A stretch of 28,993 nucleotides of DNA, from positions 1-28,993 of IMG/VR virus record IMGVR_UViG_3300025674_000267. One strand, given 5' to 3'. This document shows, in pieces, positions 13,837-28,872 of this stretch (the first letter of the stretch is position 1; each line of letters starts with the position of its first letter). The notes under the pieces were generated by a model. That model saw nothing but the letters and a program-made list of their open reading frames with translations. It was not told the origin of the DNA and did no database searches. The position numbers were made by a program, and so were the translations under genes. This stretch comes from a virus.

Positions 13837-14032
13837 TTTCTGGATCCACCTAGTAGCATTCTTTCAAGTTGTCGTGATGAACTGCATTCAACCCGTCAAC
13901 TGGAAGTATTGTTACAGGGTGGACCAGTGGCTCTTGCCAGATCTGGTTGAGGGGTATAGAATATGGACTGGAGAAACCCACCCCTATCAAAATGAAAAAG
14001 ATTATCTTAAAGACTTACCTCCCTCTAAATAG
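13829..14032 (+). CDS. Small protein of unknown function
   Basis: The frame is open from a GTG at 13829 (67 residues) and has an ATG at 13877 (51 residues). Neither has a clear ribosome-binding site. From the GTG, the N-terminus is hydrophobic (FWIHLVAFFQVVV), possibly a membrane segment. From the ATG, the protein is soluble and Trp/Tyr-rich (NWKYCYRVDQWLLPDLV). The TAG stop lies inside a CTAAATA late-promoter box. No family recognised. Confidence 0.55.
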   Translation: MYSFWIHLVAFFQVVVMNCIQPVNWKYCYRVDQWLLPDLVEGYRIWTGETHPYQNEKDYLKDLPPSK

Positions 14033-14051: not shown

Positions 14052-14053
14052 AT

Positions 14054-15889
14054 ATGTCACAACTAAGAGCTACCAAACCAAAAATTGCTGGGAAGCTTCC
14101 TCTTGAGATTAAATACAACTCCAAGGCATTAAATTCTTTCTATCAGATTCAAGCAGAACGAGTCTCGAATCTGATTGACATTAAGGATGTTGTTGAGAAT
14201 CATAATGTCTCTAGTAATGCAGAGACTCATGTTCAACCAGTTGACAATACAAATTCAACTGAGAGGATTGTACAATCATGGGGTGTGAAGATTACAATCC
14301 ACCATGCAAAACATAGGAATTCTATTCTCAGTAAAATATACAATGCTCTAGAAAGCAAAGCAGATGAGATTATTCTAGAGTATCAAAATTTCTTTGCAAT
14401 GAACCTCCTAAATGTTGTAGTTAGAGGGTTCAAACTGACTAGGAATACTATCTGGGCTAAGGGATCTAACAGTATTTTCCTGGAGTGTGATGTATTTGAT
14501 GATGATGGTAATATCACTGAGACATTTTATCCATATGCAATTTTTGCCAAGGGAAATATCAAAGATCAGGGAGATCCACATGAACTGATGACTGGTGCCT
14601 TGATTGCTATGGGCAGTATCATTCCAGTGTCTAACATTAATGGCATGGATTTGATTAATAGAAATGCTGCACTGGACAATATTACAGATAGAATTCATTC
14701 CTATCTTAGTGGTAATTCTAAGATGGTTGGATGGAAAGAAAAAGAGCGTAGGTTAATTCAGGGTGACCATATAAACCTTGCAAAGGCATTGTCTGTTTCT
14801 AACTATGTAAATTTTTTGATGAAGAGAAACGCTGCTACAGTAGTAAAGGTGTATCAAACTGGTGCTGCATGGGATGCTGCGATTAGACACCTTGAAGGTA
14901 GTGGTCCAGAAAAAGATCAGTTGATTAAAGCATACAACTCTTCTGACCTGATCATACATTTTGTAAAATCTAGGGTTGATTATTACTGGGGTTTGTCTCT
15001 AAAGAAAAAATCTGGACCCAATGATGACCCAACTCTATTGAATAAACCATTGGTTGGTGAAGCTTCTGCGAGTGGTAAGCAAAAAGCAGGATACTTATAC
15101 CTGAAGGCGCAGGGTAATGAGAAGCGAGACTTAATCAAGGCAGAAAATAATTTTTGGAAGCAGGTATACATGGTCAAGAATGGACCAGAACCTGAGTTTG
15201 CTCAGGGTAAAAAACTTGGTGACAATGTAGAACCTACTAACTGGCCACCAGATAAACTTCCAGCAGATTGGAAGAAGAGACTTGATAGTCAACTTGCAGA
15301 TAATGAAAAGAATGCTGCTTTGACTGGTAGAGAGTATAGAGGTGACAAGTATCCTACTAACTTTTTCTTCAAAGAGTTGGACACTGTGTTCAGACGAATC
15401 ATGACTGTTCCAGCAAACTTTAGAGAGTTTCTGGACCTTGCATTTAGATTTGACATTGATGAGTATGTGAACACTCCACACTTCTATTTCAGTCTTATTA
15501 CTGGAACTGGTGACATTAAGAATGGAAAGATTGTTGTGTCTAAGGTTGAAGAAAAAAGTAGTGCTCTGATGAAAGAAGTGTTCAACATTATGTTTAACAA
15601 AGGCGTCTCTAGTCTGGGCAATCCATCTGCGATTGCCAAACCAGGCACACTAAAACTGTCCACCACCCCTGGCAAGGTGCAGGCGTTTGCTGCCAACGCG
15701 ACAGCTGCCAAACTGTTCTACACCATGTCCATTGACAACATGCCTGTGGTAAACTTAGAGGTGAGATACAAGGGTGCCATCACTTCGTCGCCACAGTTTC
15801 AGGTCTTTATCACAACCGAGTTTAAGACTTACTACAAGCGAGCACAACAGATCCTAGAGACCAAAGGAATCCGCACTGTCCTACGATGA
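14054..15889 (+). CDS. Large conserved cyanophage protein of unknown function (611 aa)
   Basis: No established domain is recognised. It is the first gene of a 4-base-overlap cassette with the ligase-like and HxGH nucleotidyltransferase genes, under a late-promoter box. Residues 1-60 are polar; 70-260 look mixed alpha/beta; a conspicuous block DPHELMTGALI (near 174-184) is followed by DYYWGLSLKKK (309-319) and DPTLLNKPLVG. The Glu helix followed by an Asp strand and SLK resembles the layout of PD-(D/E)xK nucleases, but the match is loose. The C-terminal 180 residues (LDTVFRRIMTVPANFREFLD onward) form a second region. A virion protein is the main alternative. No signal peptide or membrane segment is seen. 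Confidence 0.85.
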   Translation: MSQLRATKPKIAGKLPLEIKYNSKALNSFYQIQAERVSNLIDIKDVVENHNVSSNAETHVQPVDNTNSTERIVQSWGVKITIHHAKHRNSILSKIYNALESKADEIILEYQNFFAMNLLNVVVRGFKLTRNTIWAKGSNSIFLECDVFDDDGNITETFYPYAIFAKGNIKDQGDPHELMTGALIAMGSIIPVSNINGMDLINRNAALDNITDRIHSYLSGNSKMVGWKEKERRLIQGDHINLAKALSVSNYVNFLMKRNAATVVKVYQTGAAWDAAIRHLEGSGPEKDQLIKAYNSSDLIIHFVKSRVDYYWGLSLKKKSGPNDDPTLLNKPLVGEASASGKQKAGYLYLKAQGNEKRDLIKAENNFWKQVYMVKNGPEPEFAQGKKLGDNVEPTNWPPDKLPADWKKRLDSQLADNEKNAALTGREYRGDKYPTNFFFKELDTVFRRIMTVPANFREFLDLAFRFDIDEYVNTPHFYFSLITGTGDIKNGKIVVSKVEEKSSALMKEVFNIMFNKGVSSLGNPSAIAKPGTLKLSTTPGKVQAFAANATAAKLFYTMSIDNMPVVNLEVRYKGAITSSPQFQVFITTEFKTYYKRAQQILETKGIRTVLR

Positions 15890-17112
15890 CTAAGAACCTT
15901 CACCTAGAACACATTGAAGATCTGATGCTGATCGAAGGATCTGATGGCATCAAGACATCTTTTGACTATATTGATGATCTGGTAAAAACTTTCTCTGGGA
16001 CTCCAAAGAACAATCGTAAGATTTCTACTAAGTGGGATGGAGCACCTGCTATTTTCTGTGGTCCAGACCCAGCAGATGGTAAGTTTTTTGTTGCTAAGAA
16101 AGGTATCTTTAATAAGAAACCTATCCTGTTCAAAAGCATCAAAGAGATTGAGGATGGTGAGAGTCGTGTTGATCTTGCCAACACATTCAAAGCAGTTTAT
16201 AGGGGTATGAAACCTCTGTATGACAAAGGTAAACTGAAAGATGTTGTGCAAGGTGACTTTTTATTCCATGCTGGCACCAGACAAACTAAGACTGTCATGG
16301 GAGAAAACTGTGTGTTGTTCAAACCACAGTTGATCGTATATTGTATTCCTGATCACGATGATTTGTATGATGCTGCTAAAAGGTGTAAGGTCTGTGTAGT
16401 TATTCACGCCAAGTATCCAAAAGGAAATGCCAAAACTGTTGCTGACCTGTCTGTAAACTTTGGTTTTGATGCCTCGCACCTATCTACAGATGACTGTCTG
16501 ATTATTAGTCCATTTACATCAGAACTTGGATCTAACATGGCACTCACACCCAGTGAAAAATCTAAGTTAAACACTTGGAAGCGTGCTGCCAGAAACCTTA
16601 CACCCAAGGTAGCACCATTTGTTGACATGATTGCACCTGAGCATACTGACAACATGGGTGTTGCATATCTAATCAAGCAATACTTCAATGCTAGGGTTAG
16701 GGAAGGACAGAAAGTAACTAGTGCATCTGGATTTTATCGAGAATTTTGTGCCTGGTATGAGGATAAATTTAGGACAAAGTGGGAAGGGCTTACAGATCCT
16801 AAAGCGATTACTAGGTGGAAGAAAAAGTATTGTATCGGTAAGGCAGTGCTGGTTAATAACAAGACTCAGTTCATCAACATGGTAGCCCTATATAATACGA
16901 TCCAGAATATCAAGGGCATATTCATACCTAAGTTTGAAGCAGGAGAGAGGTTCAAAACTTTCTATTATAATGAGGATGGAACCTATGAAGTTGGTGATCA
17001 GGAAGGTTATGTTGTTGTTAGGGAGTCAACGAACGCAGTAAAAATTGTTCAACGACTCGGTGGATTCAGCGAGAGAAACTTCAATGAGATGAAGCGTTGG
17101 TCTAAAAAATGA
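15886..17112 (+). CDS. Nucleotidyltransferase/ligase-superfamily-like protein (408 aa)
   Basis: It shows the motif series of covalent nucleotidyltransferases (DNA/RNA ligases, capping enzymes). Motif I is KWDG with Lys49 as the candidate AMP-accepting residue, in STKWDGAPAIF. A motif III-like strand VVQGDFLF lies at 120-127, motif IV EGYVVVRE near 373-380 and motif V-like AVKIVQR near 384-390. I read it as a divergent ligase-fold enzyme, perhaps of the DUF6267 type. Residues 150-350 hold a large family-specific insert. The substrate is unknown (DNA, RNA or protein). It overlaps both neighbours by 4 bases. Confidence 0.75.
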   Translation: MTKNLHLEHIEDLMLIEGSDGIKTSFDYIDDLVKTFSGTPKNNRKISTKWDGAPAIFCGPDPADGKFFVAKKGIFNKKPILFKSIKEIEDGESRVDLANTFKAVYRGMKPLYDKGKLKDVVQGDFLFHAGTRQTKTVMGENCVLFKPQLIVYCIPDHDDLYDAAKRCKVCVVIHAKYPKGNAKTVADLSVNFGFDASHLSTDDCLIISPFTSELGSNMALTPSEKSKLNTWKRAARNLTPKVAPFVDMIAPEHTDNMGVAYLIKQYFNARVREGQKVTSASGFYREFCAWYEDKFRTKWEGLTDPKAITRWKKKYCIGKAVLVNNKTQFINMVALYNTIQNIKGIFIPKFEAGERFKTFYYNEDGTYEVGDQEGYVVVRESTNAVKIVQRLGGFSERNFNEMKRWSKK

Positions 17113-17675
17113 ATAGGAAAATTGTACTAGCATTTGGTAGGTTCAATCCACCTACAATCGGGCACGAAAAGTTAATCGAAGCATGTGCTACTGCAGCAAG
17201 ACAGCACAAGTGTGACTATAAAGTTTATATTAGTGTCAAAGTTGAGGCAGAAAAGAATCCATTGCCTCCTAATGAAAAACTTTGGTTTATGAAAAAGATG
17301 TTTCCCAGTCACGCTGATCACATCTTTGCAGATACTGATGTACCAGATCCGTTTTTATTATTGGCATTGTTCAACAAAGAGTATGATGAAGTTGTGTTTG
17401 TTGCTGGTTCTGATAGAGTCGCTGGTTATGAGAAATCATTCAATAGACATATGAACGGACCTACTGCAACTTTCTACTATAGTTCACTTAATATAGTATC
17501 ATCTGGTGAAAGAGATCCTGACTCTGAGGGTGCTTCTGGTATGTCCGCTAGCAAGATGCGTGAAGCAGTCCAAAAGGGTGATATAATATCCTTTAGGAAG
17601 GGTATACCAAAAACTTTAGGACGCACAGATATGATGATGCTATACAATGCTGTACATGATGGGATGGGACTGTGA
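17109..17675 (+). CDS. HxGH-type nucleotidyltransferase (NMNAT/cytidylyltransferase-like)
   Basis: This Rossmann-type nucleotidyltransferase has FGRFNPPTIGH at residues 9-19 (TxGH form of the HxGH motif), VAGSDR near 98-103, and SGMSASKMREA at 143-153, equivalent to the ISSTxxR phosphate-binding motif. Such enzymes join a nucleotide to NMN, phosphopantetheine, glycerol-3-phosphate or a related acceptor. Cyanophage copies are usually labelled cytidylyltransferase without proof. At 188 residues it is a complete single domain. An NAD-related role beside a ligase-like protein is possible but inferred. Confidence 0.85.
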   Translation: MNRKIVLAFGRFNPPTIGHEKLIEACATAARQHKCDYKVYISVKVEAEKNPLPPNEKLWFMKKMFPSHADHIFADTDVPDPFLLLALFNKEYDEVVFVAGSDRVAGYEKSFNRHMNGPTATFYYSSLNIVSSGERDPDSEGASGMSASKMREAVQKGDIISFRKGIPKTLGRTDMMMLYNAVHDGMGL

Positions 17676-17881
17676 AAGATTTTAAAAAACTTAGAGAGGA
17701 AGCGACAAGACAGTCACATAGGCAAGCACCTCTGAAAGAGGGTGACTATATTATGTCTTCTAGGACAGGTGATAAGGGAACTGTTCATCGATCTGGTGTC
17801 AACTATGTTATTGCTATCACTGAGGATGGAAAAATGTTTCGTGAGTGGGTAAAGGACATTCGTCCTATAAATAGACCATAG
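17672..17881 (+). CDS. Small basic protein with capsid-targeting-like leader (69 aa)
   Basis: A GTG start at 17672 overlaps the preceding stop and follows GGGATGGGA. The first ten residues MKDFKKLREE, then Ala, resemble the T4 capsid-targeting leader MKTYQEFIAE|A in length, in Met-Lys at the start, an aromatic at 4, a hydrophobic residue at 7 and Glu at 10. The remaining part is a small beta-rich domain (EGDYIMSSRTGDKGTVH onward), reminiscent of KOW/SH3-like barrels. Cleavage by the gp21 protease and packaging are inferred. Confidence 0.75.
   Translation: MKDFKKLREEATRQSHRQAPLKEGDYIMSSRTGDKGTVHRSGVNYVIAITEDGKMFREWVKDIRPINRP
17865..17873 (+). promoter_or_regulatory. T4-late-like promoter box CTATAAATA
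   Basis: TATAAATA (17866-17873), the exact T4 late consensus, lies in the last codons of the 69-residue gene and 28 bases before the ATG at 17902. Confidence 0.7.
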
Positions 17882-17901: not shown

Positions 17902-18774
17902 ATGGATAAGCAGAGACCTGTTAACAAAGTCGCTCACAATGATGTGTATTCATCTACATTGATGGAAATGTATACAAACTGGATGGGTGGCGATTGCTTC
18001 CAAGGCAGTAATATTCCTGAAGCGTTTGCTGGAATGGATCCACAGTCTCATGGTGCTGAGGTTGAAGATACAACTAAGAAGAAGAAAAAGATTGATAAGA
18101 AAGAAAAGTCTGTTGCTGAAGACATTGAGATTCTTGAGCGTGAAGAGTATGAGATTGATGGCGTAACTTATGTCATTGAAAAGCAGAAAGGTCTAGACGG
18201 TAAAGCTTGCTGGAAAGGATACAAGCAGATGGGCACCAAGATGAAGGGTGGCAAGAAAGTTGATAACTGCGTCAAAGCAGGTTTTGAACCAGAAGGTGAA
18301 GAGATCTCTGAAGGCAAGGATAAGTGCCCCAAGTGTGACGGTGATGGTTGCAAGCATTGCGACAACAAAGGTTATCACATGAAGGAATACTTTGAGAAAG
18401 AGAATGGTAAGATGGTGAAGAAGCATAACTGTGCCGCTAAAGTTAAGAAAGAAGGTAAAGAGTATTTCTGTATTCCTGAGCAACACACCATGCTTGAGGA
18501 TGGAACTGTAACCCACTACGATCTAGTCAGTGAGAAGGGTGAAGTTCTTAGAAATGTTCCTGTTACTGATCTTGAGATCGTTGTTGAGAAGATGCATGAG
18601 CACGCTGTTAATCATGCTAAGAATGCTGAGCTTCTGGGTGAGAAGAAACTAGATCCAGTTGGCAAGGCAGATGCTGATATTGACAACGATGGTGATGTAG
18701 ACAAGTCTGACAAGTATCTACATGCCCGTCGCAAGAAGGTTAGTAAGATTCTTGCTATGAAGAAGAAAAAATGA
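17902..18774 (+). CDS. Charged modular protein with CxxC zinc ribbon and EF-hand-like loop (290 aa)
   Basis: A highly charged, probably virion-associated protein built of short modules. A Lys-rich linker (near 57-70) precedes a domain with CWKGYKQMGTKMKGGKKVDN (near 103-122), a module that recurs in marine T4-like phage proteins. A DnaJ-like zinc ribbon follows, CPKCDGDGC...C (Cys142, 145, 150, 153). The end carries a dockerin/EF-hand-like calcium loop DIDNDGDVDKSD (259-270) and a poly-Lys tail. The function is unknown; DNA or protein scaffolding inside the head is plausible. It has its own late promoter and overlaps the next gene by 4 bases. Confidence 0.8.
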   Translation: MDKQRPVNKVAHNDVYSSTLMEMYTNWMGGDCFQGSNIPEAFAGMDPQSHGAEVEDTTKKKKKIDKKEKSVAEDIEILEREEYEIDGVTYVIEKQKGLDGKACWKGYKQMGTKMKGGKKVDNCVKAGFEPEGEEISEGKDKCPKCDGDGCKHCDNKGYHMKEYFEKENGKMVKKHNCAAKVKKEGKEYFCIPEQHTMLEDGTVTHYDLVSEKGEVLRNVPVTDLEIVVEKMHEHAVNHAKNAELLGEKKLDPVGKADADIDNDGDVDKSDKYLHARRKKVSKILAMKKKK

Positions 18775-19109
18775 AAACTTTTAAACAACTACGCGAAGAG
18801 TGTGAGTCTAAAGACAAAGAACGAAAAGCAAAAAAGTCAAAGAAAACTGTTGAGGTGATGCCAACCGTAAAGGATGGACCACCAAAAGAGTATACACCTA
18901 CAAAATCTGAGTCTTTCGCTGGTAATTATCAGGGTCCACTCTATGCTCCTCACCCTGATTTAGTTCAGGAGGTAGCACCACCTGGCGCTAAGTATGAGAG
19001 AATGGTGAAGCATATCAAGAAGGGATATAAGAAAGATGGTAAGTTGACGGATGATGAAAAGTCCATCGCTTACGCCACTGCATGGAAAGCAAAAAATAAG
19101 AATAAATAG
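18771..19109 (+). CDS. Small basic protein with capsid-targeting-like leader (112 aa)
   Basis: The product begins MKTFKQLREE|C, almost the T4 capsid-targeting sequence (MKTYQEFIAE|A) in length and pattern. The body is Lys-rich and disordered, with a C-terminal helical block (AKYERMVKHIKKGYKKDGKL, then TDDEKSIAYATAWK) that recurs in cyanophage proteins. This looks like an internal head protein processed by the prohead protease. It overlaps the 290-residue gene by 4 bases, and its TAG stop lies in a late-promoter box. Confidence 0.8.
   Translation: MKTFKQLREECESKDKERKAKKSKKTVEVMPTVKDGPPKEYTPTKSESFAGNYQGPLYAPHPDLVQEVAPPGAKYERMVKHIKKGYKKDGKLTDDEKSIAYATAWKAKNKNK
19102..19108 (+). promoter_or_regulatory. 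T4-late-like promoter box ATAAATA
   Basis: ATAAATA overlaps the TAG stop of the preceding gene and lies 25 bases before the ATG at 19134. Confidence 0.5.
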
Positions 19110-19404: not shown

Positions 19405-19995
19405 ATGTCTCTATACGGAAGAACTGACTCGGCAACCAATGTCACCAAGGCTGGTAGAGGTATTGCTGCGTCGTCTCAAGCTAAAACAGTTGTCTTCGTT
19501 GATGAAACGGAAGCAGCACTTGCGGAAAACAAAGCAAGAGGTATCAATGCACCTGGATGGTGGTCGTATTTTACATACACTGATGCTAGTGGTGCCACTC
19601 GCCACAAAGCAGAGCATCTTGTAACTCTTGCTAATGCAGATCTCAACTCTAACGAGACTCAATCTGATGACGATATTGCAGCAGACGTTCAGAACATCGT
19701 TACTATTTCTGTACCACCTGCAGATACATCAGTAACAGCACCTGCAACTGCAACCTTCTCTGTTACTGCATCAGTAACAACTGGTACAGGTACGATTGCA
19801 TATCAGTGGCAACTCAGCACAGACAGCGGTGCTTCGTTCTCTGACATTTCGGGTGCAACATCTGCTTCTTACACAACTCCTGCAACCACTGCAGTAACGT
19901 TTGATGAGAACGGATATCAGTACAGAGTCAAACTCACCACCGATACTGGTGCTGCTGAAGTAGTCTCCGCTGCTGCTACACTAACTGTTGCATAA
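19405..19995 (+). CDS. Virion-type protein with C-terminal Ig-like domain
   Basis: This 196-residue late protein has an N-terminal domain typical of a widespread cyanophage structural protein (SLYGRTDSATNVTKAGRGIA, then PGWWSYFTYTDASGATRHKA). From about residue 110 it carries an Ig-like/bacterial Ig domain rich in Thr, Ser and Ala, with YQWQLSTDSGASFSDISGAT and a closing AEVVSAAATLTV strand. Ig domains on phage capsids (T4 Hoc is an example) decorate the virion and may bind surfaces. It has its own late promoter and a preceding terminator, so it may be highly expressed. Confidence 0.85.
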   Translation: MSLYGRTDSATNVTKAGRGIAASSQAKTVVFVDETEAALAENKARGINAPGWWSYFTYTDASGATRHKAEHLVTLANADLNSNETQSDDDIAADVQNIVTISVPPADTSVTAPATATFSVTASVTTGTGTIAYQWQLSTDSGASFSDISGATSASYTTPATTAVTFDENGYQYRVKLTTDTGAAEVVSAAATLTVA

Positions 19996-28576: not shown

Positions 28577-28588
28577 CGCTCTGCCTTT

Positions 28589-28675
28589 GGAGAGTTGGCC
28601 GAGTGGACGATGGCGCAGCACTGGAAATGCTGTAAGGGGGCAACTTCTTCGAGAGTTCGAATCTCTCACTCTCCG
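28589..28675 (+). tRNA. tRNA-Ser (GGA)
   Basis: The 7-pair acceptor stem GGAGAGT/ACTCTCC, the anticodon stem CAGCA/TGCTG with loop CTGGAAA giving anticodon GGA, and a long variable arm show a class II serine tRNA. The T-arm holds GTTCGAATC. The discriminator base is G (28675), as in bacterial serine tRNAs. CCA is not encoded; TTGACA of the next promoter follows directly. Confidence 0.93.
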
Positions 28676-28704
28676 TTGACAATCTGACCAGTCTTTGGTA
28701 TGAT
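28676..28704 (+). promoter_or_regulatory. Sigma-70-type promoter between tRNA genes (TTGACA-17-TATGAT)
   Basis: TTGACA (28676-28681) begins on the base after tRNA-Ser; TATGAT (28699-28704) follows after 17 bases. The predicted start near 28711 is close to the first base of tRNA-Arg (28713), so the tRNA pair may be made with almost no 5' leader. Confidence 0.65.
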
Positions 28705-28712
28705 TGTCCCAT

Positions 28713-28789
<77 letters not shown>

Positions 28790-28872
28790 GTCGGTATGGC
28801 GGAATTGGTAGACGCGCTGGGTTTAGGTTCCAGTGTCCTTGCGACGTGGAGGTTCAAGTCCTCTTACCGACA
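28790..28872 (+). tRNA. tRNA-Leu (TAG)
   Basis: The acceptor stem GTCGGTA/TACCGAC, the anticodon stem CTGGG/TCCAG with loop TTTAGGT (anticodon TAG), a long variable arm and discriminator A are those of a class II leucine tRNA. CCA is not encoded. It abuts tRNA-Arg with no spacer. Confidence 0.93.

What the first reader, a model, noticed from the sequence alone, without database searches (positions are those of the whole stretch)
14054..17675. Coupled cassette of an unknown protein, a ligase-like enzyme and a HxGH nucleotidyltransferase
Three late genes overlap by 4 bases each. The second shows ligase-superfamily motifs (KWDG at 49-52, EGYVVVRE near 373-380, VKIV near 385). The third is a TxGH nucleotidyltransferase. 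The first (611 aa) has an HEL helix near 176 and DYYWGLSLKKK at 309-319, loosely like a PD-(D/E)xK nuclease. One reading is a nuclease/nucleotidyltransferase/ligase system for nucleic-acid end processing or NAD-linked chemistry late in infection. The 611-aa nuclease reading is speculative; a virion protein is the main rival.
Basis: partly seen in the sequence, partly recalled or inferred. Interest (0 to 1): 0.72.

Follow-up and report, generated by a model that had tools for sequence, protein, structure and literature searches.

The report
Late phage nuclease-ligase-nucleotidyltransferase cassette
In a marine T4-like phage, three overlapping genes form a late-expressed set made of a probable DNA-cutting enzyme that related phages swap cleanly for unrelated ones, an RNA-ligase-like enzyme and a nucleotide-transferring enzyme; it looks like a conflict or nucleic-acid-processing module, and its last member is known to ride inside the particles of related cyanophages.

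Summary
The trio is real: ORFs 14054-15889 (A, 611 aa), 15886-17112 (B, 408 aa) and 17109-17675 (C, 188 aa) overlap by 4 bases each; a fourth ORF (D) follows the same way. B is Pfam DUF6267 with intact covalent-nucleotidyltransferase motifs; its AlphaFold model best matches RNA ligases (Z 9.3). C is an intact T/HxGH nucleotidylyltransferase, directly after B in 82 of 89 loci and fused to it in S-PM2. A has invariant E177, D298 and S315-x-K317, and residues 172-593 resemble restriction enzyme HinP1I (Z 6.7): a probable PD-(D/E)xK nuclease, moderate confidence. Beyond the finding: (1) A is exchanged ATG-to-stop between phages whose flanking genes are 83-95% identical; 114 proteins in this slot form 16 clusters, some recognisably Type II restriction enzymes. 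(2) The slot heads a late operon (late motif at 79/92 slots, 0/85 at gp41). (3) In relatives C, and sometimes B, carries a T4-like capsid-targeting N-terminus, and C was found in S-SM1, S-SZBM1 and S-CREM2 virions. The window's clade lacks that signal on A, B and C, so packaging there is not supported. Biological role (conflict or end processing) is inferred.

The parts
14025..14031 (+). CTAAATA, T4-type late promoter motif heading the cassette
   Evidence: enriched upstream of this slot in relatives, 79/92 versus 67/990 random windows; lies inside the conserved flank that remains when A is swapped
14054..15889 (+). Gene A, 611 aa, phrog_3060; probable PD-(D/E)xK restriction-like nuclease (E177, D298, S315-x-K317), in an exchangeable slot
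15886..17112 (+). Gene B, 408 aa, DUF6267; RNA-ligase-fold covalent nucleotidyltransferase, predicted catalytic Lys49
17109..17675 (+). Gene C, 188 aa, T/HxGH nucleotidylyltransferase (GRFNPPTIGH, GSDR, SASKMR)
17672..17881 (+). Gene D, 69 aa; matches the domain that is fused to the C-terminus of C in other phages (annotated there as 'ribonucleotide reductase alpha subunit', without support here)

Best explanation
A late-transcribed cassette of three nucleic-acid- or nucleotide-active enzymes. Gene A is a restriction-like PD-(D/E)xK nuclease whose gene is repeatedly replaced as a whole, as expected if its target or opponent keeps changing. Gene B is an RNA-ligase-fold enzyme that should take a nucleotide onto Lys49 and pass it to a nucleic-acid (or other) end. 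Gene C is a T/HxGH nucleotidylyltransferase that should join an NMP to a small phosphorylated substrate. Working mechanism (inferred): A cuts competing or host nucleic acid, while B and C seal, cap or otherwise protect phage nucleic acid. In many relatives C (and in pelagiphage-type relatives B, rarely the A-slot protein) carries a T4-like capsid-targeting N-terminus, so those phages would deliver the enzymes with the genome; in the window's clade the signal is missing and the enzymes more likely act late in the producing cell. Shown by computation: gene set, intact motifs, ligase-like fold of B, swapping of A, late promoter. Shown by others: C in virions of relatives. Inferred: nuclease activity, substrates, biological role.
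For: B: DUF6267 E 1.9e-80, invariant ligase motifs, model pLDDT 88.8 with RNA ligases on top, Z 9.3. C: conserved catalytic motifs, adjacent to B in 82/89 loci and fused in S-PM2. A: invariant E/D/SxK, HinP1I-like region; other occupants of the slot match Type II restriction enzyme models, best E 6.1e-11, or show E...PKTD...SxK. Swap: flanks 83-95% identical, A without counterpart, breakpoints at 14053 and 15881/15886, at least 38 changes of slot family on the B tree. Late: 79/92. Packaging of C in relatives.
Against: A's model is only moderate (pLDDT 75.6, pTM 0.55), and Z 6.7 is in the range where chance arrangements occur. A pattern for D...SxK finds only 46/114 slot proteins (30/370 control ORFs), so not every slot family is shown to be a nuclease. 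Foldseek alone found no significant PDB match for B. Six contigs carry A and C without DUF6267, so B is not indispensable. No methyltransferase partner or other self-protection is identified. A, B and C of the window's clade lack the capsid-targeting signal, and A and B are not named in the S-SZBM1 virion list.
Confidence: 0.5

Rival explanations
1. Nucleic-acid repair cassette: B supplies the DNA ligase that cyanomyoviruses seem to lack (no gp30), or an RNA ligase for tRNA/RNA repair, with A trimming ends and C supplying an activated cofactor; there is no conflict role.
For: B resembles RNA ligases; cyanomyoviruses are reported to lack gp30 and host-DNA-degrading denA/denB (PMC2984593); the cassette sits in the replication cluster; in pelagiphage-type relatives P-loop kinases stand between B and C, reminiscent of kinase-ligase repair pairs.
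Against: Late promoter rather than early/middle expression; clean swapping of A and strong divergence of C against 83-95% identical replication genes is unusual for housekeeping repair; some relatives appear to lack B.
Confidence: 0.28
2. A is a structural or assembly protein of the virion and not an enzyme; B and C are unrelated late enzymes that happen to sit beside it.
For: Late promoter and a head-protein gene close by (19405-19995); A's model is not decisive.
Against: Invariant E/D/SxK residues, HinP1I-like region, REase_II matches and E...D...SxK of other slot occupants; the slot protein is not named in the S-SZBM1 virion list.
Confidence: 0.12
3. C with B serves NAD or nucleotide-sugar metabolism (NMN adenylylation, CDP-x formation), and A is an unrelated insertion hotspot passenger.
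For: C has weak NMN-adenylyltransferase and cytidylyltransferase matches; adenylate-kinase-like genes lie nearby in relatives; others proposed an NAD role (PMC10665884).
Against: No NAD-salvage partner is seen among the window genes that were scanned; B's fold points to nucleic-acid ligases.
Confidence: 0.1

Closest known systems
Pfam DUF6267 (PF19782) / phrog_455 / T4-GC 71
   Same: B is a full-length member (E 1.9e-80); near-universal in cyanomyoviruses, 443-467 phage records matched
   Different: The family has no assigned function; the ligase-fold reading and the swapped nuclease neighbour are additions from this work
ATP-dependent RNA ligases (Naegleria RNA ligase, TbREL1, T4 Rnl2, Rnl1)
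   Same: KxDG, EGxV and KxV motifs and nucleotidyltransferase fold, Z 6.2-9.3
   Different: 10-15% identity, only 167-203 of 408 residues aligned; helical segment 222-352 before motif IV; unique N-terminal HLEHxED; activity unknown
HinP1I and other PD-(D/E)xK restriction endonucleases
   Same: Region 172-593 of A aligns to 209 of 247 HinP1I residues; D...SxK signature; slot homologues match REase_II
   Different: A is 611 aa with a non-conserved N-terminal domain; SxK instead of (D/E)xK; no methylase identified; gene sits in a phage late operon
T4 internal proteins (ipI, ipII, ipIII)
   Same: Late, diverse, swapped set of phage proteins; relatives of C and B share the MKxFxxFLxE|A type N-terminus (PMC3012670)
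   Different: Enzymes of 188-611 aa and not small inhibitors; signal absent from A, B and C in the window's clade
Phage NMN adenylyltransferases (NadM/NadR type) and the virion 'cytidylyltransferase' T4-GC190
   Same: C is a homologue of T4-GC190, found in virions of S-SM1, S-SZBM1 and S-CREM2
   Different: The window copy is the bare catalytic domain without the N-terminal targeting extension; no Nudix or kinase domain
T4 kinase-ligase RNA repair (Pnkp-Rnl1)
   Same: Ligase-fold enzyme, in pelagiphage-type relatives next to P-loop kinases
   Different: No kinase in the window cassette; a nuclease-like and an HxGH enzyme instead

Membership tests
DUF6267 (PF19782) | Whole-length profile match above the gathering score | tested here: met
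   271.5 bits versus cut-off 27, residues 4-403, profile 1-376
Covalent nucleotidyltransferase / RNA ligase superfamily (B) | Motif I KxDG and motifs III, IV, V with invariant catalytic residues | tested here: met
   K49-x-D-G, D124, E373-G, K386 invariant in 22-30 relatives
Covalent nucleotidyltransferase / RNA ligase superfamily (B) | Ligase nucleotidyltransferase fold | tested here: met
   VIA-align Z 9.3, 187 residues, rmsd 3.9; rows 1-42 ranked by Z are RNA or DNA ligases. Caveat: Foldseek E-values not significant
Covalent nucleotidyltransferase / RNA ligase superfamily (B) | Enzyme-(lysyl)-NMP formation and strand sealing | not testable with these tools
   Needs biochemistry
PD-(D/E)xK nuclease (A) | Conserved catalytic E, D and (D/E/S)xK residues | tested here: met
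   E177, D298, S315-x-K317 invariant in 23 homologues
PD-(D/E)xK nuclease (A) | Restriction-endonuclease-like core fold | tested here: inconclusive
   HinP1I Z 6.7 over 209 residues, Foldseek prob 0.82, but model pLDDT 75.6 and pTM 0.55
PD-(D/E)xK nuclease (A) | Metal-dependent phosphodiesterase activity | not testable with these tools
   Needs biochemistry
Restriction-modification system | Cognate methyltransferase beside the nuclease | tested here: not met
   B, C, D, E and the scanned upstream genes are not methyltransferases by Pfam, PHROG, NCBIfam or PADLOC; other parts of the genome are unseen. Works-like remains possible; membership is not claimed
HIGH-superfamily nucleotidylyltransferase (C) | (H/T)xGH and SxxxxR signature in a conserved context | tested here: met
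   GRFNPPTxGH, GSDR, SASKMR over 16 relatives
HIGH-superfamily nucleotidylyltransferase (C) | Known substrate specificity (NMN, CTP, pantetheine-P) | tested here: inconclusive
   Only sub-threshold matches to several subfamilies
T4-type internal (packaged) protein | N-terminal capsid-targeting sequence with L/I-x-E cleavage site, in the window's A, B, C | tested here: not met
   0/26 A, 0/23 B, 0/21 C in the window's clade; relatives C 38/89, B 28/105
T4-type internal (packaged) protein | Detected in purified virions | not testable with these tools
   No virion data for this phage; for relatives C was detected (PMC3037559, PMC9146016, PMC10665884)
T4-type late gene | NTAAATA late promoter just upstream | tested here: met
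   CTAAATA at 14025; 79/92 in the slot across relatives

The most novel reading that the evidence does not exclude
Marine T4-like phages carry a modular conflict system unlike known restriction-modification: an exchangeable restriction-type nuclease paired not with a methylase but with an RNA-ligase-fold enzyme and an HxGH nucleotidylyltransferase that mark, cap or repair the phage's own nucleic acid; it is made late and in several lineages is loaded into the head and injected.
Probability: 0.22. Interest if true: 0.88.

Novelty: new variant of a known kind. Interest (0 to 1): 0.62.

Why it matters
Genes B and C are near-core in cyanomyoviruses (hundreds of isolates) but have no assigned role. 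This analysis gives B a testable catalytic residue, recasts its heavily diversified neighbour as a probable nuclease, and links the virion-borne 'cytidylyltransferase' to partner enzymes. It makes two gaps noted in the literature directly testable: what replaces the missing gp30 DNA ligase, and what replaces the missing DenA/DenB nucleases in cyanophages (PMC2984593).

Tried and rejected
D309 of the DYYWG motif as the nuclease Asp: rejected, not conserved. Pol-beta-like N-terminus of A (GLD-2/Cid1/Rel, Z up to 7.7): not claimed, because no GS...DxD motif is seen there and the first ~170 residues differ between A subfamilies. Packaging of the window's own trio: not supported. Two capsid-targeting patterns were tried: the looser one hit the HLEH region of B by chance and was replaced; the stricter one still hits UvsX (47/673 other ORFs). 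Both were written after seeing examples, so their counts are descriptive. A D...SxK pattern as proof for all slot families: insufficient. Forced alignment of 70 slot proteins kept D298 at 90% or more, but such an alignment of unrelated sequences is weak evidence. PDB sequence searches with A, B and slot profiles found nothing useful. No paper on DUF6267 was found. PADLOC gave no hit for the window's A, B or C. The zero DUF6267 result in six contigs is from fragments and had no positive control in that search; B was found in G000 by the same family search.
Full report
Setting. The window is a 28,993-base viral record of a T4-like phage; by gene B its nearest isolates are Synechococcus phages S-H9-1 and S-H9-2. 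The order gp43-uvsX-gp41-mazG-trx-x-A-B-C-D-E-...-gp61-nrdA-nrdB is that of S-H9-1 and close to P-HM2, Syn1, Syn9 and S-SM1.

Observation. The three ORFs and their 4-base overlaps are as stated, and a fourth ORF, D, continues the chain. D corresponds to a domain fused to the end of C in other phages, so C plus D equals the longer protein of Syn9-type phages minus its N-terminal extension.

Gene B. B is a full-length DUF6267 (E 1.9e-80). Over 22-30 relatives, down to about 24% identity, invariant residues include K49-x-D-G-x-P, D124 (QGD), H174, Y177, E373-G374-x-V, K386 and R390, plus a family-specific N-terminal HLEHxED. AlphaFold2 on 30 viral sequences gave pLDDT 88.8 and pTM 0.84. VIA-align put RNA ligases on top: Naegleria RNA ligase Z 9.3 (187 residues, rmsd 3.9), TbREL1 7.8, T4 Rnl2 7.5, Trl1 7.4, T4 Rnl1 6.3, with DNA ligases near 6. 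Foldseek alone was not significant, so the fold claim rests on VIA-align plus motifs. A helical segment (222-352) precedes motif IV, which differs from those ligases.

Gene C. C keeps GRFNPPTxGH, GSDR and SASKMR across 16 divergent relatives and has weak matches to cytidylyltransferase-like and NMN-adenylyltransferase models; its substrate is unknown. C directly follows B in 82 of 89 loci, is fused to it in S-PM2, and lies further downstream in three; phrog_455 spans both.

Gene A. A belongs to phrog_3060. In 23 homologues E177 (DPHELMT), D298 (YNSSD) and S315-L-K317 are invariant. The model is middling (pLDDT 75.6, pTM 0.55), but residues 172-593 match restriction enzyme HinP1I over 209 of its 247 residues (Z 6.7; Foldseek rank 2, E 0.013). 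This fits a PD-(D/E)xK nuclease but does not prove it.

The swapped slot. Between the window and S-H9-1 the flanking replication proteins are 83-95% identical, but A has no counterpart (E < 1e-3), B is 68% and C only 44% identical; with L006 uvsX, gp41, mazG and trx are 88-94%, A has none, B is 72% and C 35%. At nucleotide level the 82-83% identity to both ends at base 14053, the base before A's ATG, and resumes at 15881 or 15886, where B's ATG lies; the late promoter is inside the conserved flank. Conversely L069 and L072 share A (60 and 52%) while their B is only 38% identical. Of 114 distinct proteins found upstream of B, BLAST makes 16 clusters; profile comparison links 0-15, 3-7, 1-4 and 6-10. 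On a tree of 104 B proteins the slot family changes at least 38 times (52-59 when shuffled). A few slot occupants are other genes, such as a helicase or a desaturase. Several slot families look like nucleases on their own: clusters 3/7 have invariant E21, PKTD94 and S-x-K105; cluster 5 members match PADLOC REase_II, best E 6.1e-11. A simple pattern search does not cover all families.

Late expression. An NTAAATA late motif lies within 90 nt upstream of 79 of 92 slot genes, mostly 22-34 nt away, versus 0/85 for gp41, 0/17 for gp61, 0/9 for nrdA and 67/990 random windows. The motif is the published cyanophage late promoter (PMC2984593). The cassette is thus a late unit inside the replication region.

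Packaging in relatives. The C proteins of Syn9, S-SM1 and others begin MKKFSAFL(S/N)EA, like T4 ipII/ipIII MKTYQEFIAE-A; an old T4 record annotates cleavage after residue 10 of ipII. A strict pattern marks C in 38/89 relatives (shuffled mean 0.3), B in 28/105 (1.2) and A in 5/68 (0.5), but none in the window's clade. Published virion proteomes contain this enzyme: T4-GC190 in S-SM1 (PMC3037559); S-SZBM1_140, 362 aa, which fits in size and name the cytidyltransferase gene directly after DUF6267 (PMC9146016); and ORF154 of S-CREM2 (PMC10665884). All three start with such a signal. A and B of S-SZBM1 lack it and are not named in the list. So the signal goes with packaging in these cases, and for the window it predicts no packaging. 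In pelagiphage-type relatives P-loop kinases with the same N-terminus, one adenylate-kinase-like and one zeta-toxin/AAA_33-like, stand between B and C.

Mechanism. Clean replacement of one gene under a fixed late promoter, fast divergence of C, and restriction-like slot occupants point to conflict with hosts or other phages; T4's internal proteins are a known precedent for a diverse, late, exchangeable set (PMC3012670). B and C would act on nucleic-acid ends or on a tag that protects the phage. This last step is inference. The main rival is repair: cyanomyoviruses are reported to lack gp30 ligase and denA/denB (PMC2984593), and B could fill that gap.

Verdict. Enzyme identities: B and C well supported, A probable. 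Cassette behaviour (late, swappable) well supported. Biological role open.

Noticed in passing
L129:2954-3538, L135:5543-6217, L062:10718-11377: In pelagiphage-type relatives an adenylate-kinase-like protein and a zeta-toxin/AAA_33-like P-loop kinase, some with a capsid-targeting-like N-terminus, sit between B and C.
   Followed up: partly
17902-18774 (gene E): E ends in a dockerin-like DADIDNDGDVDKSDKYLHARRKK tail and holds a CWKGYKQMGTKMKGGKKVDNCVK segment; pieces of it match several different phage families, including C-terminal parts of other cytidyltransferases. A downstream neighbour of C in S-SZBM1 (S-SZBM1_139) is a virion protein.
   Followed up: no
17672-17881 and 18771-19109: D (MKDFKKLREEA) and the gene at 18771 (MKTFKQLREEC) start almost alike and resemble degenerate capsid-targeting sequences; in D the LRE part also aligns with an internal stretch of fused homologues.
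   Followed up: no
14090-14566 (A residues 13-171): The N-terminal part of A's model resembles Pol-beta-type nucleotidyltransferases (GLD-2, Cid1, Rel) at Z up to 7.7 without their catalytic motif.
   Followed up: partly
L098, L103, L104, L106, L108, L117: Contigs in which A is followed directly by a C protein with capsid-targeting N-terminus and no DUF6267 was found.
   Followed up: partly
L073:6609-8227 (phage Syn33): The A homologue of Syn33 is split into two adjacent ORFs (134 and 405 aa) where relatives have one.
   Followed up: no
L075:6001-6534 (Escherichia phage 121Q): Jumbo phages such as 121Q and PA5oct carry a homologue of C with a true HxGH; in 121Q it is annotated as ribonucleotide reductase, probably a misannotation.
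   Followed up: no
28588-28872: Three tRNA genes: Ser(GGA), Arg(TCT), Leu(TAG).
   Followed up: no
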